A stretch of DNA of 64,000 nt. It comes from Cellulosimicrobium terreum (GTDB lineage Bacteria; Actinomycetota; Actinomycetes; Actinomycetales; Cellulomonadaceae). The DNA is taken from positions 248,001 through 312,000 of the forward strand of contig JACYFD010000001.1 of assembly GCA_014803435.1 (NCBI GenBank), in the 5' to 3' direction. The notes beneath the pieces were generated by a model, which ran no database searches, was not told where the DNA came from, and saw nothing but the letters and a program-made list of their open reading frames with translations. Positions 7,996 to 42,564 of the stretch are shown piece by piece. Within the stretch, counting starts at the first letter, position 1. The number at the start of each line of letters is the position of its first letter. Both the position numbers and the translations under genes were made by a program.

Positions 7996-8016
7996 GCAGC
8001 AACGTAGCAGGCTTGG

Positions 8017-31933: not shown

Positions 31934-33205
31934 TCACCGGGTGCCGCCGTCGGTGTCCTGAGCGCGCTCGAGCAGGTAGTCGCGCTCCACGGCGTTCTCG
32001 GTCAGCGCCGCGGCGGCGCGGAACGTCGCCGCAGCCTCGCCCGTGCGGCCGAGCTCGGACAGCAGGTGCGCGCGGACGGCGCGCTCCCGGAACCGGGTGA
32101 GCGGGTCGGCGCTCAGGCCGTGCGCGTGGTCGAGGCTGTCGAGCAGGGTCAGCCCGCGGGTCGGGCCGAACGCGCGCGCGACGGCGACGACCCGCGCGAG
32201 GCGGACCGGGCCGGTCGGCGTGAGCCGTTCGAGCCACAGGTAGAGGGCCGCGACCTGCGGCCAGTCGGTCGCGCCGTCGTCCGTCGCCGCGGCGTGCACG
32301 GCGGAGATCGCCGCCTGCACCTGGTACGGGCCGACCGCGCGCCGCGTCCACACGTCCTCGAGGACCGCGGTGCCCTCGTCGATCATCGACCGGTCCCAGA
32401 GGTTGCGGTCCTGGCCATCGAGCGGGACCAGCCGGTGCTCGACGTCGGTCCGGGCCGGCCGACGCGCCTCGGTGAGCAGCATGAGTGCGAGCAGCCCGGC
32501 GACCTCCCCGTCGCGCGGGCTGTGGTCGCGTGCGAGCCGGGCCAGGCGGATCGCCTCCTGGGCGAGGTCGACCCGGCCCAGCTCGGTGCCCGCGCTGGCC
32601 GTGTAGCCCTCGTTGAAGACGAGGTAGAGCACGCGCAGGACGGAGGTGAGCCGCGCGTCGCGGTCCTGCGCCGTCGGGGCGACGAACCGTGCGCCCGCCC
32701 GTGCGAGCTGCTGCTTCGCCCGGCTGATCCGCGTCCCCATCGTCGCCTCCGTGACCCCGTAGGCCCGCGCGATCTCGGCCGTCGTGAGACCGCCGACGGC
32801 CCGGAGCGTGAGGGCGACCTGCGACGTCGGGCTCAGGGCCGGGTGGCAGCACAGGAGGAGCACGGTGAGGCTGTCGTCGTCGTCGACCACCCGGGGCCGG
32901 CGGTCAGACTCCTGGACCGCGAGCTCCGTGCCACCCACCAGGCGTTCGCGGCGGTGTCGCGCGTGCTCGGCGCGCAGGAGGTCGACCATCCTGCGGTACC
33001 CCACACGGATCAGCCACGACCGGGGATCGGCCGGGACGCCGTCGACCGGCCACTGCGCGCTCGCCGCGAGGAGCGCCTCCTGGACCGCGTCCTCCGCGAC
33101 GTCGAACCGGCTGAAGCGGCGCGCGAGCGCGCCGAGCACCTGCGGCGCCTCGGTGCGCAGCAGGTCCTCGATCGTGCCGTCGGGCACGGCGTGCAGAGCG
33201 GGCAT
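31934..33205 (-). CDS. ECF42-type RNA polymerase sigma factor with TPR-like C-terminal domain
   Basis: A 423-residue sigma factor. Region 2 (residues 10-80: A-E-D-A-V-Q-E-A-L, then P-R-S-W-L-I-R-V-G-Y-R-R) and region 4 (about 110-165: T-T-A-E-I-A-R-A-Y-G-V-T-E-A-T-M-G-T-R-I-S-R-A-K) are followed by a roughly 250-residue helical TPR/DUF6596-type extension starting with L-Y-L-V-F-N-E-G-Y. This is the ECF42 architecture, in which the extension replaces a separate anti-sigma factor. The gene starts five bases after the DGPF-protein gene ends, the known genetic partner of ECF42. Family studies report a TGTCGA -35 motif for target promoters. Confidence 0.9.
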   Translation of the reverse strand: MPALHAVPDGTIEDLLRTEAPQVLGALARRFSRFDVAEDAVQEALLAASAQWPVDGVPADPRSWLIRVGYRRMVDLLRAEHARHRRERLVGGTELAVQESDRRPRVVDDDDSLTVLLLCCHPALSPTSQVALTLRAVGGLTTAEIARAYGVTEATMGTRISRAKQQLARAGARFVAPTAQDRDARLTSVLRVLYLVFNEGYTASAGTELGRVDLAQEAIRLARLARDHSPRDGEVAGLLALMLLTEARRPARTDVEHRLVPLDGQDRNLWDRSMIDEGTAVLEDVWTRRAVGPYQVQAAISAVHAAATDDGATDWPQVAALYLWLERLTPTGPVRLARVVAVARAFGPTRGLTLLDSLDHAHGLSADPLTRFRERAVRAHLLSELGRTGEAAATFRAAAALTENAVERDYLLERAQDTDGGTR

Positions 33206-33210
33206 CGGCC

Positions 33211-33582
33211 TCAGGCGGCGAACTCGTCGCCCATGATCGGCCGGATCTCGACCGGCTCGCCGAGAATCTCGACGATGCGGCTGACGATCTCGACGGCCCG
33301 CTCGTGGCTCGCGACGTCGATCACCGCGAAGCTGGCGAGGACCTCCTTGAGCTCGGCGAACGGGCCGTCGGTGGCGACGACGCCGGCGTCGGTCCGCCGC
33401 ACCGTCGTGCTCACGGCCGGGTGGCCGAGACCCTCGCTCGAGACGAACTCGCCGGTCGCCCGCAGCTCGGCCTCGAACCGCTGGTAGACGGCGAACGCCG
33501 CGAGCGCCTCCTCGGAGGGGACGTCCGCGGTCGCCGCGTCCCAGTCGGCGGTCGGCGTGTAGCCGAGGACCAGGTACTTCAT
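33211..33582 (-). CDS. DGPF/YCII-related partner of the ECF42 sigma factor
   Basis: A 123-residue YCII-superfamily protein. It begins M-K-Y-L-V-L-G-Y and carries the name-giving T-D-G-P-F-A-E-L-K-E at about residue 71, then G-F/A-S-F-A-V-I-D-V-A-S. Proteins of this group accompany ECF42 sigma factors in many actinobacteria; they are main targets of the sigma factor and their biochemical role is unknown. It is co-transcribed with the sigma gene. Starts and length are standard. Confidence 0.9.
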   Translation of the reverse strand: MKYLVLGYTPTADWDAATADVPSEEALAAFAVYQRFEAELRATGEFVSSEGLGHPAVSTTVRRTDAGVVATDGPFAELKEVLASFAVIDVASHERAVEIVSRIVEILGEPVEIRPIMGDEFAA

Positions 33583-33647
33583 CGTCGTTCTCCCTCGTTT
33601 CGTGGGGGTGCATGGGGTGCGTGGGGTGCGAGGACGGCCCGGCGGTC

Positions 33648-34337
33648 TCAGTCCTTCGAGGGTGTCAGACGGCGGTGCAGCCGCACCGCGACGACCGTTG
33701 TCCACGTGAACGCGACAAGTCCCGTCGCGGCGACCTGCACACTCGCGTGATCCGGTGAGACCGGCAGCAGCAGCACCAGTGCCACCGCGCCGTGACCGAC
33801 GGCCGCCAGGGTACGACGCTCACGGATCGCGCGGACCGTGAGCACGGCGCAGGCGATCGCGATCCCCGTGAACGCGAGCACCGCGGCGACCGAGTGCGCG
33901 ACGCCGTGCCACGACATCGCAGCGGCCGGGCCGTCGGGCGTGCCCACGGGGAAGCCGTGCTCGGGGTCCATGACGAACACGCCCGCGAGGACGAACCCGA
34001 GTCCGGAGAGCGCGAGGAGGACGGGGACGGCGCGGCGCCCGACGCCGTCGGGCACGAGCCGGCGGTGGGCGACCGCCAGGGCGAGGATCCCCAGGCCGGT
34101 GAGGACGAACGTCGTGATCTGGATCCAGCCCAGGCTGCCGGTGGAGAGCTGGCTGAGGGGGTGGACGCGCAGGTCGAAGCCGTCGCGCGTGAGCATCTGC
34201 ACGGCTGCGGACGCGTAGAAGAACGGGCCGGTCGCCGCCGCCGCGGCGAGCAGGAGGCGGGTGGACCGGCGCGTCGGTCGGGACGGTGCCGTACGGGTGT
34301 GCGGCGTGCCGGACTGCGTGGACGGCTGTGCGCTCAT
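33648..34337 (-). CDS. DUF998-family integral membrane protein
   Basis: 229 residues with six predicted membrane helices. It has the DUF998 pattern H-P-L-S-Q-L-S-T-G near the end of the first loop and, in a later loop, M-D-P-E-H-G-F-P-V-G and S-W-H-G-V-A-H-S-V-A. A hydrophilic, Thr/Ser/Pro/Arg-rich N-terminus (about 27 residues) precedes TM1. Function is unknown. It lies 65 bases upstream of the DGPF-sigma pair on the same strand and may be the first gene of that operon, with the CRP palindrome and TGTCGA motif in its promoter. Confidence 0.85.
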   Translation of the reverse strand: MSAQPSTQSGTPHTRTAPSRPTRRSTRLLLAAAAATGPFFYASAAVQMLTRDGFDLRVHPLSQLSTGSLGWIQITTFVLTGLGILALAVAHRRLVPDGVGRRAVPVLLALSGLGFVLAGVFVMDPEHGFPVGTPDGPAAAMSWHGVAHSVAAVLAFTGIAIACAVLTVRAIRERRTLAAVGHGAVALVLLLPVSPDHASVQVAATGLVAFTWTTVVAVRLHRRLTPSKD

Positions 34338-35067: not shown

Positions 35068-36162
35068 ATGACCGCGCTCGCGCACACCGACCCGCACCCC
35101 CTCGGGCCCCGCCCCCTGGCAGCACCGGGCGAGGCCCCGGACGGCTCGCCCGACGTCGTCCTCGGTCCGGAGGAGCTCGCGGCCGTGCGCGCCCTCGGGA
35201 CCGACGTCCGCGCAACGCTGGCGTGGGTGGCCGAGGTCGCGGCGCGGTTCCCCCTGCCGGGCGACGGGCGGACGGCGGGGCTGTGGGCGGCGCTCGCGAC
35301 CGTCGCGGCGGTCGATGTCGGCGTGGCCCGCGCGCTGGAGCCGCACCTCGACGCGCTCGCGATCCTCGCGCAGGTCCCTGGCCCGGTCGCGCTCGACGCC
35401 GTCGGCGTCGACGGGGGCAGCACCTGGGGGGTCTTCGCCGCCGAGGGGCCGGGTGCGCGCCTCGAGGCGACGGCGGCCGACGGCGCGTGGTCCCTCACCG
35501 GCACCAAGCCCTGGTGCTCGCTCGCCGCGGACCTCAGCCACGCGCTCGTCACGGCCTGGACCGACGACGGCCGGCGCCTCTTCGCCGTGGACCTGCGCGC
35601 GCCGTCGGCCGAGCCCGCGGACGGCCCGTGGGTCGCGCGCGGGCTCGCGCAGGTCGTCAGCGCGTCCGTCCGGTTCGACACCGCACCGGCGGTCCCCGTG
35701 GGCGACGCGGGCTGGTACCTCGGACGACCGGGGTTCGCGTGGGGCGGGATCGGGGTCGCGGCGTGCTGGTGGGGCGGCGCCGTCGGGCTCGCGCGCACGC
35801 TGTGGGACGCGCTCGGCCGCCGCGAGCCCGACCAGCTCGCGCTCGCTCACCTCGGGGCGACCGACGTGGCGCTCGGCGCCGCGCGGGCCGCTCTCGCCGA
35901 GGCCGCCACGGCGGTCGACGACGGCCTCGACGGCCGGGACGCCGCGCTCGTCGCACGCCGGGTCCGGGCCGTCGTCGTCGACGCCGTCGAGGAGGTCCAG
36001 CGCCGGTGCGCGCACGCGCTGGGCCCCGGGCCGCTCACGACCGACGAGGAGTTCGCCCGCCGCGTCGCCGACCTCGGCCTGTACGTCCGCCAGCACCACG
36101 CCGAGCGCGACCAGGCAGCGCTCGGACGCGACCTGCTCGCGGCGGGGGATCGGCCGTGGTGA
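35068..36162 (+). CDS. Acyl-CoA-dehydrogenase-like flavoprotein
   Basis: A 364-residue protein with the ACAD plan: an N-terminal helical part with T-A-G-L-W-A-A-L-A-T-V, a middle beta-domain with W-S-L-T-G-T-K-P-W-C-S-L-A (the canonical L-x-G-x-K substrate/FAD region) and a C-terminal helical bundle. The catalytic Glu region is weakly conserved. It is shorter and more divergent than true beta-oxidation enzymes, and its natural substrate is unknown. GGAGG precedes the ATG. Its stop overlaps the next gene (GTGA), making it first of a three-gene operon with a deacetylase-methyltransferase fusion and a glycosyltransferase. Confidence 0.82.
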   Translation: MTALAHTDPHPLGPRPLAAPGEAPDGSPDVVLGPEELAAVRALGTDVRATLAWVAEVAARFPLPGDGRTAGLWAALATVAAVDVGVARALEPHLDALAILAQVPGPVALDAVGVDGGSTWGVFAAEGPGARLEATAADGAWSLTGTKPWCSLAADLSHALVTAWTDDGRRLFAVDLRAPSAEPADGPWVARGLAQVVSASVRFDTAPAVPVGDAGWYLGRPGFAWGGIGVAACWWGGAVGLARTLWDALGRREPDQLALAHLGATDVALGAARAALAEAATAVDDGLDGRDAALVARRVRAVVVDAVEEVQRRCAHALGPGPLTTDEEFARRVADLGLYVRQHHAERDQAALGRDLLAAGDRPW

Positions 36163-37598
36163 GCTTCGACCACCGCGAGCCCGGGACGCCCGAGGACGCC
36201 TGGGTGGACGCGGGCATTCTCGACCGGCCGCGAGAACTCGACCTCGCCGACGTCGCGGCACTCGTCGTGCTGGCCGCGCACCCCGACGACGAGTCCCTCG
36301 GTGCGGGCGGGCTGGTGCACCGGCTCGCGGCGCGCGGGGTGCCCGTGACCCTCGTCGTCGCGACCGACGGCGAGGGCTCCCACCCGGGCTCCGCGACGCT
36401 GCCGCGCGAGCTGAGGGACAGACGTCGCCGCGAGGTCCTCGACGCGGTCGACGCGCTCGCCGACGGCGCGCGCGTCCTGCTGCTCGGCCTCCCGGACGGC
36501 GGCCTGCGCGAGCACCGCGAGACGCTGCGCACCGCCGTCGCGGCCGCGGTGGACCTCTCTCGCGCCACCGACCCCCGGGCTGGCGACGCCGTCGGGCGCA
36601 CGCTCCTGTGCGCGCCGTGGCGCGGCGACGGGCACCGCGACCACCGCGTCGCCGGGGAGGTCGCGGCGGACGTCGCGGCCGACTCCGCGAGCACGCACGA
36701 CGTCCGGCTCGTGGAGTACCCCGTCTGGCTGTGGCACTGGGGCGACCCGGCAGGGTCCGACGTGCCGTGGGACGCGCTGCGCGGCCTGCGCCTCACCGAC
36801 GAGGAGGTCGCCGCGAAGGCGAAGGCCGTGGCCGCCCACGCCTCGCAGGTCGGGCCGCTGTCCGCCCGGCCCGGCGACGAGGCGGTCGTCGGGCCCGAGA
36901 TGCTGCGCCACGCGGCCCGCCCCGTCGAGGTGCTGGTCGAGGCGCGCGACGACGGCCGGGTCAAGCCCGGTCACGCGAGCCCCGACCGGGCCGACCCGGA
37001 GCGCTCGCTCGCGCGGGACTTCTTCGACCGCTTCTACACGGGGCGCGCCGACCCGTGGGGGTTCGAGTCCCGCTGGTACGAGGAGCGCAAGCGCGCGCTC
37101 CTCCTCGCGTCGCTGCCGCGCCCCCGGTTCCGTTCCGCGCTCGAGGTCGGGTGCTCGACCGGCGTCCTCACGGCAGCGATCGCGTCGCGCGCCGACCGCG
37201 TCGTGGGCGTCGACGTCGCGGATGCGCCCCTGGCGGCCGCGCACAGGCGGCTCGGCCCCGACGTCGAGCTGCTCCGGCTCGACACGCCCGAGGCATGGCC
37301 CGAGGGCACGTTCGACCTCGTCGTCCTCTCCGAGGTCCTCTACTACTACGGGCACGACGACCTCGACCGCACCCTCGACCGCGCGACCGGGTCGCTCGCC
37401 GACGACGGCGTGCTCGTCGCGTGCCACTGGCGCCACGACGTCCCCGAGTACCCCCTCGGCGGCGACGAGGTGCAGGCGCGCGTCGTCGCACGGCCCGAGC
37501 TGGACGTCGTCGCGCACCACGCGGAAGAAGACTTCCTCCTCGACGTGCTCGCCCGCCGCCCCGCACGGTCGGTTGCGCGCGAGACGGGGCTGGTATGA
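36159..37598 (+). CDS. Fusion of PIG-L/LmbE deacetylase and class I SAM methyltransferase (NodS-like)
   Basis: 479 residues in two domains. Residues 1-265 form a PIG-L (LmbE/MshB-type) zinc deacetylase: A-A-H41-P-D-D44-E-S for the metal and base, and H-R-D-H-R for the third ligand. Residues about 280-479 form a methyltransferase: F-Y-x-x-x-x-D-P-W-G-F-E-S-R-W-Y-E, the SAM loop A-L-E-V-G-C-S-T-G, then V-L-S-E-V-L-Y-Y-Y. The second half resembles NodS/SAM N-methyltransferases. Together they suggest deacetylation of an N-acetyl-sugar followed by N-methylation. GTG 36159 overlaps the upstream stop; GTG 36156 is equally possible. Confidence 0.88.
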   Translation: MSFDHREPGTPEDAWVDAGILDRPRELDLADVAALVVLAAHPDDESLGAGGLVHRLAARGVPVTLVVATDGEGSHPGSATLPRELRDRRRREVLDAVDALADGARVLLLGLPDGGLREHRETLRTAVAAAVDLSRATDPRAGDAVGRTLLCAPWRGDGHRDHRVAGEVAADVAADSASTHDVRLVEYPVWLWHWGDPAGSDVPWDALRGLRLTDEEVAAKAKAVAAHASQVGPLSARPGDEAVVGPEMLRHAARPVEVLVEARDDGRVKPGHASPDRADPERSLARDFFDRFYTGRADPWGFESRWYEERKRALLLASLPRPRFRSALEVGCSTGVLTAAIASRADRVVGVDVADAPLAAAHRRLGPDVELLRLDTPEAWPEGTFDLVVLSEVLYYYGHDDLDRTLDRATGSLADDGVLVACHWRHDVPEYPLGGDEVQARVVARPELDVVAHHAEEDFLLDVLARRPARSVARETGLV

Positions 37599-38305
37599 CG
37601 GTCGAGGCCGTCGCGGTGGTGGTGCCCGCGCACGACGAGGACGAGCTGCTGCCCGCCTGCCTCGCCTCCGTGGAGCGGGCCGTGCGGGCCCTGCACGACG
37701 CGCGCCCCGACCTGCTCGTGGCCACCCTCGTCGTCCTCGACGGGTGCACCGACGCGAGCGCCGACGTCGTGCGCGCCGCGGCCGTGCCCGCACTGAGCAC
37801 CGACCACGTGGGCGTGGGCGGGGCCCGGCGCGCAGGCGTCGAGGCCGTCCTCGACCTCCTGCCCGAGACCCCGGCGGACCGGACCTGGCTCGCGTGCACT
37901 GACGCCGACTCGGTCGTCCCCGACCACTGGCTCACCCACCACGTCCGCCTCGCGGACGACGGCGCGGACGTCGTCGTCGGCACGGTCCGGCCCCGGCTCG
38001 ACGAGCTCTCGCCCGACCGCGCGGCGGCCTGGCGCTCGCGGCACGTCCCCGGCCAGGCCAACGGGCACGTGCACGGCGCGAACCTCGGCGTCCGCCGGTC
38101 GACCTACGACGCGGCGGGCGGCTTCGCGACCGTCGCCGAGCACGAGGACGTCGGGCTCGTGCACGCCGCGCGGCTGGCGGGCGCCCGGGTCGTCGCCGAC
38201 GCGCAGGCCGAGGTGCTTACGTCCGCGCGCCTCGTGGGGCGGACGCCCGGCGGCTACGCGCGGCACCTGAGGGAGGACCTCGTGCCCCTCGACCGCTCCG
38301 CGTAG
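37595..38305 (+). CDS. Family 2 glycosyltransferase
   Basis: 236 residues with a GT-A fold: V-V-V-P-A-H-D-E-D-E-L-L-P-A-C-L at the N-terminus, T-L-V-V-L-D-G-C-T-D-A-S-A-D, the nucleotide-sugar/metal motif C-T-D-A-D-S-V and a late G-A-N-L-G-V-R-R-S-T-Y-D-A-A-G-G-F. E-H-E-D-V-G-L fits the catalytic E-D region. No membrane segment is predicted, so it acts at the cytosolic face. ATGA overlap with the deacetylase-methyltransferase indicates tight coupling, and the three proteins likely build or tailor one glycoside. The acceptor is unknown. Confidence 0.87.
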   Translation: MTVEAVAVVVPAHDEDELLPACLASVERAVRALHDARPDLLVATLVVLDGCTDASADVVRAAAVPALSTDHVGVGGARRAGVEAVLDLLPETPADRTWLACTDADSVVPDHWLTHHVRLADDGADVVVGTVRPRLDELSPDRAAAWRSRHVPGQANGHVHGANLGVRRSTYDAAGGFATVAEHEDVGLVHAARLAGARVVADAQAEVLTSARLVGRTPGGYARHLREDLVPLDRSA

Positions 38306-38424
38306 CCGGGCGTCCGCCTGGCTGGTGTGCGGGTCGCACCCGCCGCATGGTGGAGAGAAAGACGGTTCTGAGGTGGCTGACGACGTCTGACGGGCCGCAG
38401 GACTCCGACGACGGGAACGCTGCC

Positions 38425-39495
38425 ATGACCCTCATCTCGAACCCGGCCCCGCGGCCTGCTGCTCGCACGGTGCGCGACTACTCGGTCCTCGCGAAGCTCG
38501 TCCGCGAGTCCGGGCTCCTGCGCCGCCGGTACACCTACTACTGGTCGCGGATGATCCTCACCGTCGCGGCGTTCGCCGGGGTCTGGGTGGCGGTCGTCCT
38601 GGTGGGCGACTCGTGGTGGCAGCTCGTGCTCGCCGCGGCGCTCGCCGTCGTCCTCGCGCAGCTCGCGTTCCTCGGGCACGACAGCTCCCACCGGCAGATC
38701 TTCCGCTCCCGGGCGTGGAACGACTGGACCGCGCGGGTGCTGGCGAACGGGTTCGTCGGGCTGAGCCACGCGTGGTGGACCGCGAAGCACGACGCGCACC
38801 ACGCCGCGCCCAACCAGGAGGGCCACGACCCCGACATCAAGCCCGGGGTCGTCGCGTTCACGCCGGCCGTCATGGCGAGCCGACGCGGCTGGCGCGGGTG
38901 GCTCGCCCGCAAGCAGGGCTGGTTCTTCTTCCCGCTCCTCACGCTCGAAGGGCTCAACCTGCACGTCGCGAGCGTGCGGGCGGTCCTGCGCCGCGGCCAC
39001 CTGCCGCACCGCGGGGTCGAGGTCCCCGTCCTGCTCACGCGGCTCGCGGTCTACCTCGCGGCGCTGTTCCTGCTCCTGCCGCCCGCGATCGCCGGGGCGT
39101 TCCTCGGCGTGCAGCTCGCCCTGTTCGGCGTCCTGCTGGGTGGGGCGTTCGCCCCCAACCACAAGGGCATGCCGATCGTCCCCGCCGACGCCGACGTCGA
39201 CTTCCTGCGCCGGCAGGTGCTCATGTCACGCAACATCCGGGGCAACGCGTTCGTCGACCTGCTCATGGGCGGGCTGAACCGCCAGGTCGAGCACCACCTC
39301 TTCCCGAGCATGCCGCGCCCCAACCTCCGGCGCGTCCAGCCCCTGGTCCGCGAGCACTGCGAACGGCTCGGCGTCGCGTACACCGAGGTCGGGTTCTTCG
39401 CGTCGTACCGGATCGTCGTGGGCTACCTCAACGACGTCCCCGGCCGCGCGCGCGACCCGTTCGCCTGCCCGCTGGCGGCTAGCCTCGGACGATAG
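38425..39495 (+). CDS. Membrane fatty-acid desaturase
   Basis: 356 residues from the ATG at 38425 (an upstream ATG at 38347 would add 26 residues without family features). The three histidine boxes are present: H-D-S-S-H (after L-G), H-D-A-H-H and Q-V-E-H-H-L-F, separated by two pairs of membrane helices. This is the front-end/acyl-lipid type that inserts a cis double bond using ferredoxin or cytochrome electrons. Its stop lies 17 bases inside the 3' end of the converging helical gene. It is beside, but not clearly in, the acyl-CoA-dehydrogenase/glycosyltransferase operon. Confidence 0.9.
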   Translation: MTLISNPAPRPAARTVRDYSVLAKLVRESGLLRRRYTYYWSRMILTVAAFAGVWVAVVLVGDSWWQLVLAAALAVVLAQLAFLGHDSSHRQIFRSRAWNDWTARVLANGFVGLSHAWWTAKHDAHHAAPNQEGHDPDIKPGVVAFTPAVMASRRGWRGWLARKQGWFFFPLLTLEGLNLHVASVRAVLRRGHLPHRGVEVPVLLTRLAVYLAALFLLLPPAIAGAFLGVQLALFGVLLGGAFAPNHKGMPIVPADADVDFLRRQVLMSRNIRGNAFVDLLMGGLNRQVEHHLFPSMPRPNLRRVQPLVREHCERLGVAYTEVGFFASYRIVVGYLNDVPGRARDPFACPLAASLGR

Positions 39496-39991
39496 GGCGC
39501 GTGAGCGCGGCAGGCCGCAGGCGCTCGAGCAGGTCTGTGAGGTCGTCCACCTGTCGTCGCGCCTGCTCCTCGAGCTCGGCGGCGCGCGACCGGTCCACGA
39601 CGACGTCCTCGGGGAGCTGCTGGAGGGTCCGCCAGCCGCTCTGCTTGCCGGTCACCGCGCCGCGCAGGAGCTCGACCTCGAGCAGCGCCGACAGGGGCGA
39701 CTGCCGCACGACGCGCCCGTTCGGCTTGAGCCGCCCGACCCGCTCGGCCGCCGCCGCGAGCAGCACCTTGTACCGGCTCACGTGGAAGCCGAGGGCCTTC
39801 GTCGTGGCGACGAGGAACTCGCGCTCCTCGTCGAGCTCGTCGACCATCGGGCCGACGACGTCGCCCACCGGCGTGCCCTCGTACGCCCGGGCCATGCGCC
39901 GGACGCGGTTCAGCCCGACGGTCGCGCCCGCGACGTGGTCGTCGAGGTAGGTCGCGATGAGGTCGCGGTCCGTCTGCCGCGTCGACGTCAT
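39479..39991 (-). CDS. Uncharacterised all-helical protein
   Basis: 170 residues, rich in Glu, Arg and Leu, with about four amphipathic helices (V-R-R-M-A-R-A-Y, D-E-L-D-E-E-R-E-F-L, A-E-L-E-E-Q-A-R-R-Q-V-D-D-L). The size and helix plan fit a ferritin-like or DUF892-type bundle, but metal-ligand E-x-x-H pairs are not evident, so no family is claimed. The ATG overlaps nothing upstream; its stop is inside the convergent desaturase. It is followed by the alcohol dehydrogenase gene with a four-base overlap (ATGA), so the two genes form an operon of which this is the downstream member. Confidence 0.6.
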   Translation of the reverse strand: MTSTRQTDRDLIATYLDDHVAGATVGLNRVRRMARAYEGTPVGDVVGPMVDELDEEREFLVATTKALGFHVSRYKVLLAAAAERVGRLKPNGRVVRQSPLSALLEVELLRGAVTGKQSGWRTLQQLPEDVVVDRSRAAELEEQARRQVDDLTDLLERLRPAALTRPIVRG

Positions 39992-41193
39992 CGTGCCGCC
40001 TCAGCCCAGGGGTCGAGGACGACCTTGATGCAGCCGTCCTCCTTGCGCTGGAACGTCCGGTACGCCTCGGGCGCGCGCTCCAGCGGGACGCGGTGCGTGC
40101 GCAGGTCGAGGACGCCCAGCGGATCGGCGGCGTCCTGGACGAGCGGCAGGAGGTCGTCGGTCCAGCGCCGTACGTTGGCCTGGCCCATGCGCAGCGTGAG
40201 CTGCTTGTCGAAGAGCTGCATCATCGGCAGCGGGTCCTTCGCGCCGCCGTAGACACCGGAGATCGACACGGTGCCGCCGCGCCGCACGACGTCGAACGCC
40301 GTGTAGAGCGCGGCGAGGCGGTCGGTGCCCACGCGCTCGGTGAGCGGCGCTGCGACGGCGTCGGGCATCCTGCCGACGACCTTCTGCGTCGCCTCGGCGA
40401 CGGGCGACCCGTGCGCCTCCATGCCGACGGCGTCGACCACGGAGTCCGGGCCGCGTCCGTCCGTCAGGTCGCGCAGGGCGGCGGCGAGGTCGTCGACGGG
40501 ACCCGGGTCGACGGTCCGGACGCCGTGCCGCTGCGCCATCGCACGGCGCTCGGGAACGGGGTCGACGCCGACGACCAGCCCGGCGCCACGGTGCAGGGCG
40601 ACGCGGGCGGCCATCTGGCCGATCGGCCCGAGCCCGAGCACGACGACGCTCCCACCCTCGGGGACTCCCGCGTACTCGACGGCCTGCCACGCGGTCGGGA
40701 GCACGTCCGAGAGGTAGAGGTAGCGTTCGTCGGGCGTGCCGTCGTCGGGCACGACCAGCGGCCCGTAGTGCGCCTGCGGGACGCGCAGGTACTGGGCCTG
40801 GCCGCCGGGGACCTGACCGTAGAGCTTGGTGTAGCCGAACAGTGCGGCGCCCTTGTCCTGCGCGTGCACCTGCGTCGTCTCGCACTGGGACTGCAGGCCA
40901 CGGCTGCACGTCCAGCAGCGACCGCAGGAGATGTTGAACGGCACGACGACGCGGTCACCCACCCGCAGGTCGCCCGCCGCGGAGCCGACCTCCTCCACGA
41001 CCCCCATCGCCTCGTGGCCCAGCACGTCGCCGGAGTCCAGGAACATCCCGAGCACGCCGTACAGGTGCAGGTCGGAACCGCAGATCGCCGTCGACGTCAC
41101 GCGCACGACCGCGTCCGTCGGCTCCTCGACCCGAGGGTCGGGGACGTCCTCGACGCTCACGCTCTCGCGCCCCTGCCAGGTCAGTGCACGCAT
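39988..41193 (-). CDS. Zinc-dependent alcohol dehydrogenase, formaldehyde-dehydrogenase-like branch
   Basis: 401 residues. The catalytic zinc region is C38-G-S-D and G-H60-E61. The structural-zinc cysteines are C90, C93, C96 and C104 (I-S-C-G-R-C-W-T-C, then C-E-T). The Rossmann loop is V-L-G-L-G-P-I-G-Q. The inserted Y-L-Y-L-S-D-V-L-P-T-A-W and the 400-residue length are typical of the glutathione-independent formaldehyde dehydrogenase/threonine-dehydrogenase-like branch. Substrate not determined. Its gene is upstream of the helical unknown (ATGA), and the pair is divergent from the ArsB-like permease. Confidence 0.9.
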   Translation of the reverse strand: MRALTWQGRESVSVEDVPDPRVEEPTDAVVRVTSTAICGSDLHLYGVLGMFLDSGDVLGHEAMGVVEEVGSAAGDLRVGDRVVVPFNISCGRCWTCSRGLQSQCETTQVHAQDKGAALFGYTKLYGQVPGGQAQYLRVPQAHYGPLVVPDDGTPDERYLYLSDVLPTAWQAVEYAGVPEGGSVVVLGLGPIGQMAARVALHRGAGLVVGVDPVPERRAMAQRHGVRTVDPGPVDDLAAALRDLTDGRGPDSVVDAVGMEAHGSPVAEATQKVVGRMPDAVAAPLTERVGTDRLAALYTAFDVVRRGGTVSISGVYGGAKDPLPMMQLFDKQLTLRMGQANVRRWTDDLLPLVQDAADPLGVLDLRTHRVPLERAPEAYRTFQRKEDGCIKVVLDPWAEAAR

Positions 41194-41343: not shown

Positions 41344-42564
41344 GTGACGTCTCCTGGTCCGGACGCCGCAGGCCCGGACGTCCGAGCCGCGGGGTCGCGC
41401 CGTCGACTCCGCGTCCCCCTCTGGGCGATCGCGGTCGTGCTCGTCGTGGCACTGCCCGCGACAGGGCTGCTCCCCGCCGACGACGCGCGGGGCCTCCTCG
41501 TGCGCACGGGCCCGGTCCTCGTGTTCCTCCTCGCGATCACGGTCGTCGCGGAGCTGTGCGCGGGCGCAGGACTGTTCGACGCCGTGGCGGGGCGTGCCGC
41601 GCGTGCGGCCCGAGGCCGGCGGCTCGCGCTCTGGGCGCTCGTCGTCGTCATGGCCACGGGGAGCACCGTGGTGCTGTCGCTCGACTCGACGGCCGTCCTC
41701 GTCACGCCCGTGGTCCTCGCCCTCGCGCGTCGCACCGGCTCGCGGCCGCTGCCGCTCGCGCTCACGGTGCTCGCGCTCGCCAACACGGCGTCGCTGCTGC
41801 TGCCCGTCTCCAACCTCACGAACCTGCTCGCCGCGTCGCGGTTCGGCACCGGGTACGTCGGCGTCATGTGGCTGCCTGCGCTCGCGGTGCTCGTCGTGAC
41901 GGTCGTCGTCCTGCTGGTGCTGCACGGCCGGTCCCTCACCGGGCGCTTCGAGCTCACCGCGCACGGCCCGACGCCGCCCGACCGGGTCCTGCTCCTCGTC
42001 ACCGGCGCCGTGGTGACGCTGCTCGCCCTCGCGTTCGCGGCCGAGCTGCCCGTGGCGCTCGCCGCGCTCGCCGGCGTCGTCGTCCTCGGTCTCGCCACGT
42101 GGTGGCGCAAGGTGCCGCTCCTCGTCCCCGTGCGCGAGATGGTCCCGTGGCGGTCCGCGCTCGTCGTCGCGGCACTGTTCGTCGTCGTGGAGACGTGGCA
42201 CGCGCACGGGCTGGGCGACATCCTCGCGGCGGTCGCCGGGGACGGGGCGGACGGGGGAGACCTGGCGCGCCTCGCGACGACGGGCGTGGTCGCCGCCAAC
42301 GCGGTGAACAACCTGCCGGCGTTCCTCGCGCTCGCCCCGACGGCGGGGGAGGACGTCGACCGGCTCGCGACACTGCTCGTCGCGGTGAACGCCGGTCCGC
42401 TCGTCACGCCGTGGGCGTCGCTCGCGACCGTGCTGTGGTGGCAGCAGTACCGCCGCCACACGTTCGGCAGCGGCGGTCCGCCCGCGTGGCCCGTCGTGCG
42501 ACAAGGGCTCGTCCTCGCACCGCTCGTCGTCGCGGCCGGCGTCGTCGCCGTCGCCCTGGGCTGA
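41344..42564 (+). CDS. ArsB/SLC13-type membrane permease
   Basis: A 406-residue, ten- to eleven-helix transporter. The two re-entrant hairpin signatures are visible: L-L-L-P-V-S-N-L-T-N-L-L in the first half, and A-N-A-V-N-N-L-P-A-F-L and N-A-G-P-L-V-T-P-W-A-S-L-A-T in the second, as in ArsB and related anion/citrate permeases. V-L-S-L-D-S-T-A-V-L precedes the first. It could export arsenite in support of the distant ars genes, but the same motif set is found in other anion permeases. GTG start at 41344 with a weak ribosome site. The next gene follows after 24 bases. Confidence 0.8.
   Translation: MTSPGPDAAGPDVRAAGSRRRLRVPLWAIAVVLVVALPATGLLPADDARGLLVRTGPVLVFLLAITVVAELCAGAGLFDAVAGRAARAARGRRLALWALVVVMATGSTVVLSLDSTAVLVTPVVLALARRTGSRPLPLALTVLALANTASLLLPVSNLTNLLAASRFGTGYVGVMWLPALAVLVVTVVVLLVLHGRSLTGRFELTAHGPTPPDRVLLLVTGAVVTLLALAFAAELPVALAALAGVVVLGLATWWRKVPLLVPVREMVPWRSALVVAALFVVVETWHAHGLGDILAAVAGDGADGGDLARLATTGVVAANAVNNLPAFLALAPTAGEDVDRLATLLVAVNAGPLVTPWASLATVLWWQQYRRHTFGSGGPPAWPVVRQGLVLAPLVVAAGVVAVALG

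What the first reader, a model, noticed from the sequence alone, without database searches (positions are those of the whole stretch)
35068..38305. Three-gene tailoring operon with a PIG-L deacetylase fused to a SAM methyltransferase
An acyl-CoA-dehydrogenase-like protein, a bifunctional deacetylase-methyltransferase and a GT2 glycosyltransferase overlap by four bases each. The chemistry reads as oxidising an acyl or amine intermediate, removing N-acetyl, methylating the freed amine and transferring a sugar. That pattern resembles thiol-glycoside (MshB-like) or Nod-factor-type (NodS-like) tailoring, but no scaffold synthase is present. The product appears undescribed. This is the best candidate in the window for a new pathway.
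Basis: partly seen in the sequence, partly recalled or inferred. Interest (0 to 1): 0.78.

Follow-up and report, generated by a model that had tools for sequence, protein, structure and literature searches.

The report
Widespread stress-linked amino-sugar tailoring cassette
Three overlapping genes, whose relatives also sit side by side in bacteria of other phyla, encode four enzyme domains predicted to make an unknown sugar compound with a methylated amino group that likely helps cells survive stress.

Summary
In detail: three co-directional ORFs (35068-36162, 36159-37598, 37595-38305) overlap by 4 bases each. They encode an acyl-CoA-dehydrogenase-fold flavoprotein (A), a PIG-L deacetylase fused to a NodS-like methyltransferase (B) and a GT2 (C). 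The cassette recurs in Proteobacteria, Deinococcus and Nostoc, often with PIG-L and methyltransferase as separate neighbours.

New here: (1) the acyl-CoA-dehydrogenase catalytic Glu is found in 0 of 169 relatives of A; (2) in a Rubrobacter-containing lineage an unrelated CE4 (NodB-type) deacetylase stands in for PIG-L; (3) relatives lie among catalase, Dps, Ku/LigD and trehalose genes; in Comamonas the operon is otsA-ACAD-PIGL-MT-GT2-otsB; (4) B is neither MshB nor NodS by curated cut-offs.

Likely reading: GT2 adds GlcNAc to a small scaffold, PIG-L frees the amine, the methyltransferase methylates it and A oxidises. Trehalose is the best-supported but unproven scaffold; that link comes mainly from Proteobacteria, not from the window's lineage. 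The product is unknown and no chemistry was shown.

The parts
35068..36162 (+). Gene A: acyl-CoA-dehydrogenase-fold flavoprotein without the catalytic Glu (aligned residue Q342 or H343, depending on the alignment)
36159..37598 (+). Gene B: PIG-L deacetylase fused to a NodS-like class I SAM methyltransferase
36264..36671 (+). PIG-L domain of B (residues 36-171), motifs AHPDDE and HRDH
37047..37436 (+). Methyltransferase domain of B (residues 297-426); nearest solved structure 4isc (2.6e-36)
37595..38305 (+). Gene C: GT2 glycosyltransferase with DAD and HED motifs
36159..36162 (+). 4-base stop/start overlap A/B (GTGA)
37595..37598 (+). 4-base stop/start overlap B/C (ATGA)

Best explanation
The three genes are the actinobacterial form of a cassette of four enzyme families (acyl-CoA-dehydrogenase-fold flavoprotein, PIG-L deacetylase, NodS-like methyltransferase, GT2) that recurs across bacterial phyla and likely makes a small N-methylated amino-sugar glycoside used under oxidative or desiccation stress. 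Proposed order (inferred, untested): C transfers N-acetylglucosamine from its nucleotide sugar to a small sugar scaffold; the PIG-L half of B removes the acetyl group; the methyltransferase half methylates the freed amine; A, which lacks the acyl-CoA-dehydrogenase base, acts as a flavin-dependent oxidase or oxygenase on the same molecule, perhaps at the amine as in the nitrososynthases of like fold. Trehalose or trehalose 6-phosphate is the most likely scaffold, made by OtsA (one copy in this genome, far from the operon). Shown: the domains, motifs, overlaps, co-occurrence, correlated divergence, the deacetylase swap and the neighbouring genes. Inferred: every reaction, the order, the scaffold and the role.
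For: Co-occurrence in the same 59 genomes of the order: B in 14 (E<=1e-40), A in 16 (E<=1e-20), C in 17 (E<=1e-15); all 14 B genomes have A and C. Four domains together (PIG-L or CE4 as deacetylase) in 79 of 80 named loci, 63 of 74 unnamed-genome loci and 18 of 25 plasmid loci (the first two sets share genomes). Six gene orders occur while the set stays together. Distance matrices of the four proteins correlate at r 0.77-0.85 over 127 distinct loci; 200 permutations reach at most 0.22. Functional swap: 27 of 34 loci without a nearby PIG-L have a CE4 polysaccharide deacetylase within 2.2 kb upstream (26 distinct; L120 and L140 appear to be one plasmid); one Sulfitobacter protein fuses GT2, NodS-like and CE4 domains. 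A: Glu at the catalytic column in 0 of 169 relatives (2 gaps, 1 X) and in 3 of 3 true dehydrogenases of the same genome (smaller alignment). Sugar link for A: in one Deinococcus (L116) A carries an N-terminal domain related to the neighbouring GH1 protein (E 1e-17 for that single comparison). Stress link: Dps-like gene within about 10 kb in 19 of 80 named loci, 0.6 expected; heme catalase in 5 of 20 plasmid genera, 0.03 expected; in A. baumannii ACICU_02432-02435 fall 31- to 62-fold together with otsA in colistin-dependent mutants (PMC5660220, passages).
Confidence: 0.5

Rival explanations
1. The cassette modifies a cell-surface or lipid-linked glycan rather than a small solute: GT2 adds GlcNAc to a polymer or lipid, B deacetylates and N-methylates it, and A modifies it further.
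For: Extra glycosyltransferase genes beside the cassette in Novosphingobium, Sphingobium, Paracoccus and Jiella; fold neighbours of C include lipid-phosphate and glycan-chain enzymes (ArnC, GtrB, WrtF); the trifunctional Sulfitobacter protein sits beside sulfotransferase and polysaccharide genes.
Against: The model of C is a compact 236-residue GT-A domain (no membrane prediction was run); a GT4 like that of Novosphingobium was found near 1 of 80 named loci (L041; other glycan genes were not searched for systematically); Comamonas encloses the cassette in otsA/otsB.
Confidence: 0.25
2. A thiol or antioxidant pathway of the mycothiol/bacillithiol kind, with B as the deacetylase of a GlcNAc-polyol.
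For: PIG-L fold, GT plus deacetylase logic, oxidative-stress neighbours.
Against: B is 24 bits against MshB cut-off 224 and 41 against BshB1 cut-off 182.5; the genome has its own Mca (441 bits, over cut-off) and an MshB-like protein (174 bits, below cut-off). No cysteine ligase is named in the annotated plasmid neighbourhoods; none was searched for as such.
Confidence: 0.07
3. A really is an acyl-CoA dehydrogenase and the product is a glycolipid or lipo-oligosaccharide (Nod-factor-like).
For: Acyl-CoA dehydrogenases lead the structural list; a fatty acid desaturase gene starts 42 bases after C in the window; the MT domain resembles NodS.
Against: Catalytic Glu in 0 of 169 aligned relatives; relatives of the desaturase lie near only 3 of the 179 loci searched. 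Acyltransferases were not searched for.
Confidence: 0.12

Closest known systems
Mycothiol pathway deacetylase MshB (TIGR03445) and bacillithiol BshB1 (TIGR04001)
   Same: PIG-L fold deacetylase; in those pathways it acts after a GlcNAc transfer (recalled)
   Different: B scores far below both curated cut-offs and is fused to a methyltransferase; GT2 here, while MshA is a GT4 (recalled)
Nod-factor NodS (N-methyltransferase) and NodB (CE4 deacetylase)
   Same: Deacetylate-then-N-methylate logic (recalled); MT domain hits Pfam NodS (44 bits, cut-off 24); a CE4 enzyme replaces PIG-L in a Rubrobacter-containing lineage
   Different: Below the NodS equivalog cut-off (54 against 300)
Nitrososynthases DnmZ, KijD3 and the Micromonospora enzyme 3mxl (amino-sugar N-oxygenases of acyl-CoA-dehydrogenase fold)
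   Same: Fold; Foldseek ranks 3, 5, 7, 10, 18; they tailor amino sugars
   Different: About 20 percent identity; true dehydrogenases score as well; no activity shown
OtsA/OtsB trehalose synthesis operon
   Same: Encloses the cassette in two Comamonas; near it in Acinetobacter
   Different: Not beside the cassette in the window
PDB 4isc, deposited only as 'Methyltransferase'
   Same: Closest solved relative of the MT domain (2.6e-36)
   Different: No paper naming it in the library searched

Membership tests
MshB (mycothiol deacetylase) | Score above NCBIfam TIGR03445 cut-off 224.35 | tested here: not met
   24.1 bits; the genome's own MshB-like protein scores 174 and its Mca 441 in the Mca model
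MshB (mycothiol deacetylase) | Deacetylates GlcNAc-inositol | not testable with these tools
   needs an assay
NodS | Score above NF041650 cut-off 300 | tested here: not met
   53.6 bits
NodS | Linked to nodABC genes | tested here: inconclusive
   no gene named nodA, nodB or nodC in the neighbourhoods shown, but plasmid annotation is incomplete and the window was not searched for them by model
PIG-L superfamily | Score above PF02585 cut-off and its motifs | tested here: met
   80.1 bits against 28.2; AHPDDE and HRDH
Acyl-CoA dehydrogenase (catalytic) | Catalytic Glu at the EGT position (motif recalled) | tested here: not met
   0 of 169 relatives, 3 of 3 true enzymes, (one search places Gln there, the larger alignment mostly His)
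Acyl-CoA dehydrogenase (fold) | Overall fold | tested here: met
Nitrososynthase (DnmZ/KijD3) | Closer in fold to N-oxygenases than to dehydrogenases | tested here: inconclusive
GT2 | Pfam PF00535 and DxD motif | tested here: met
   50.9 bits against 23.3; D103 and D105 invariant in A6

The most novel reading that the evidence does not exclude
Bacteria of many phyla share a mobile pathway that converts trehalose (or trehalose 6-phosphate) into an N-methylamino, possibly N-oxidised, trisaccharide: a new kind of charged compatible solute or radical scavenger, made by an otsA-cassette-otsB logic and assembled with interchangeable PIG-L or CE4 deacetylases.
Probability: 0.2. Interest if true: 0.86.

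Novelty: new variant of a known kind. Interest (0 to 1): 0.62.

Why it matters
A four-enzyme set that stays together in four phyla (Actinomycetota, Pseudomonadota, Deinococcota, Cyanobacteriota), on plasmids typed as conjugative and beside stress genes, with no product found in the papers searched, is a gap in carbohydrate biochemistry. The Comamonas operon names a scaffold to test, and the Glu-less flavoprotein an unusual redox step. If the product is a trehalose derivative, it would be a new class of stress solute that Acinetobacter would make too.

Tried and rejected
Fatty acid desaturase 38347-39495 as a further operon gene: starts 42 bases after C, but relatives lie near only 3 of 179 loci, so left out. 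Dps as a general neighbour: strong in the named loci (19 of 80), absent from the 14 positives of the order sample. Trehalose genes in Actinomycetota: no enrichment. The 'OtsB' hit of L175 is a beta-phosphoglucomutase-family protein beside GH65, so it is not counted as trehalose-phosphatase; the ORF I gave for its GlgE-like hit matched nothing in Pfam. L131 (Leisingera) and L216 are not the cassette and count as misses. Consensus promoter and terminator scan: none found, uninformative at this G+C. N-oxygenase reading of A: the fold comparison could not separate it from dehydrogenases. N-terminal Deinococcus domain: no match in the PDB; that of the second Deinococcus (L122) only a chance-level one in Pfam. 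Full-text searches with zero papers. Searches gave Acinetobacter baumannii papers only; I saw passages of five and only the listing of three (PMC10044110, PMC5635159, PMC8942024); no function of these four genes appears in what I saw. The tags A1S_2226-2229 for this operon in ATCC 17978 are my inference from A1S_2225 (blsA) and A1S_2230; ABUW_1490 was a wrong guess (csuC). All this covers only the held open-licence library.
Full report
THE OBSERVATION. B may start at the GTG one codon earlier. Domain calls are sound for B and C. A is marginal in Pfam but is predicted with confidence (pLDDT 90.4) as an acyl-CoA-dehydrogenase fold. The closest named proteins are from Cellulosimicrobium. Those searches gave 2118, 4214 and 1360 homologues of B, A and C, from candidate lists capped near 8000.

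CO-OCCURRENCE. A search of the same 59 genomes of the order found B in 14 (E<=1e-40), A in 16 (E<=1e-20) and C in 17 (E<=1e-15). All 14 with B, the window's genome included, have A and C. In three of the 14 the match to B is not one full-length piece: G228 has two adjacent matches, G220 and G242 only the methyltransferase half. The two extra A genomes are G139, which has the MT domain and C, and G008, where A is in two pieces without B or C. The extra C hits are G139 and two weak ones, G204 and G238, E about 1e-16. So the genes are present or absent as a set, and most genomes of the order lack them. In G200 and G243 the GT2 lies about 3 kb from its partners.

ANATOMY ELSEWHERE. One search found loci by patterns in B alone and kept the best 80. 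Of these, 79 have all four domains within 3.5 kb of the MT; the miss, L048, has B within 0.3 kb of its contig end. 78 have the order ACAD-PIGL-MT-GT2. L058 is labelled Stenotrophomonas, but its B is as close to the window's as those of other Micrococcales, so the label is doubtful. In 74 loci from unnamed Actinomycetota genomes 63 have the set when either deacetylase counts; in 25 plasmid loci 18 do. The named and unnamed sets share some genomes. In many relatives, for example Acinetobacter, Comamonas and G228, PIG-L and MT are neighbouring genes, so B is a fusion of partners. Orders seen are ACAD-PIGL-MT-GT2, GT2-ACAD-PIGL-MT, GT2-PIGL-ACAD-MT, GT2-MT-PIGL-ACAD, PIGL-MT-GT2-ACAD and ACAD-MT-PIGL-GT2. 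The four distance matrices correlate at 0.77-0.85 (127 distinct loci, 200 permutations at most 0.22); shared organism history contributes to this. In Legionella lytica the annotated 'hypothetical protein' after GT2 matches the A profile (156 bits).

DEACETYLASE SWAP. 34 of 179 loci had no PIG-L near the MT. The other seven are L124, L127, L131, L159, L172, L185 and L216. In four of the 27 (L153, L154, L166, L169) A and GT2 were not detected. CE4 and PIG-L are unrelated folds (recalled), so what is kept is the reaction, N-deacetylation (inference). L216 fuses GT2, NodS-like and CE4 domains in one protein. A pyridine-nucleotide FAD oxidoreductase recurs after MT in this lineage and could feed electrons to A (inference).

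GENE A. In an alignment with three acyl-CoA dehydrogenases from the same genome the catalytic Glu column holds Glu in those three and in none of 169 relatives (2 gaps, 1 X; the loci are not all distinct). The smaller alignment puts a Gln there that is invariant in A3 and A5; the larger one has mostly His, the next residue. Relatives by profile and fold include desulfurisation monooxygenases and the amino-sugar nitrososynthases as well as dehydrogenases, and the scores do not separate them. In Deinococcus L116 A has an extra N-terminal domain related to the GH1 protein next door (25 percent identity, 1e-17); L122 has a protein of like length whose extra part matched nothing firm.

SETTING. The 25 plasmid records cover 20 genera with the cassette or a part of it. 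Heme catalase (60 bits or more) lies within about 10 kb in 5 (0.03 expected); by annotation some catalase lies near in 8, with Deinococcus, Paraburkholderia and Rubrobacter added. OtsA lies near in 2 (0.02 expected), and any of OtsA, OtsB, GH65 or GlgE in 4: Comamonas, Acinetobacter, Legionella, Cupriavidus. The base rates come from whole-collection counts that include small plasmids, so they are low; at ten times the rate catalase stays significant (1.4e-5) and OtsA is marginal (0.018). A Dps-like gene is near 19 of 80 named loci (0.6 expected), but 10 of the 19 are Arthrobacter or Pseudarthrobacter, and it is near only 2 of 74 unnamed-genome loci. In the two Comamonas records otsA and A overlap by 4 bases and otsB follows GT2 directly. 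In Acinetobacter baumannii the four genes ACICU_02432-02435 drop 31- to 62-fold together with trehalose-6-phosphate synthase (27- and 50-fold) in colistin-dependent mutants (PMC5660220, passages only), and such an operon lies beside blsA (PMC6240043, passage). That shows shared expression change and place, not function.

WHAT IT IS NOT. B is far below the curated cut-offs for MshB, BshB1 and NodS. The genome's Mca passes its own cut-off elsewhere, and an MshB-like protein is present at 174 bits, below the cut-off. The desaturase behind C is not part of the conserved set.

VERDICT. A real, widespread cassette, with no description found in the papers searched. The chemistry class (glycosyl transfer, N-deacetylation, N-methylation, flavin oxidation) is likely; the scaffold is uncertain, with trehalose favoured by operon structure in Proteobacteria. 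Every enzymatic step is inference from family membership.

Noticed in passing
   Followed up: no
L116:6895-9258 and L122:4190-6529: Deinococcus acyl-CoA-dehydrogenase-like proteins of 787 and 779 aa; in L116 the extra N-terminal domain is related to the adjacent GH1 protein.
   Followed up: partly
L216:6366-9446: Sulfitobacter indolifex single protein with GT2, NodS-like methyltransferase and CE4 deacetylase domains.
   Followed up: partly
window 39988-41193 (-): Zinc alcohol dehydrogenase whose relatives (E<=1e-8) lie in 27 of the 179 loci searched; possibly part of the same stress setting.
   Followed up: partly
window 31934-34337 (-): A DUF6596 protein (sigma-factor-like by eye), a YCII-domain protein and a DUF998 protein in a row.
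   Followed up: no
window 41344-42564 (+): CitMHS/ArsB-type transporter.
   Followed up: no
L120:16392-19418: Arsenic genes (arsM, an ArsR regulator, arsH, two arsC) a few kb from the Rubrobacter cassette.
   Followed up: no
L058: Contig labelled Stenotrophomonas maltophilia whose B is 46 percent identical to the window's; likely contamination or a wrong label.
   Followed up: no
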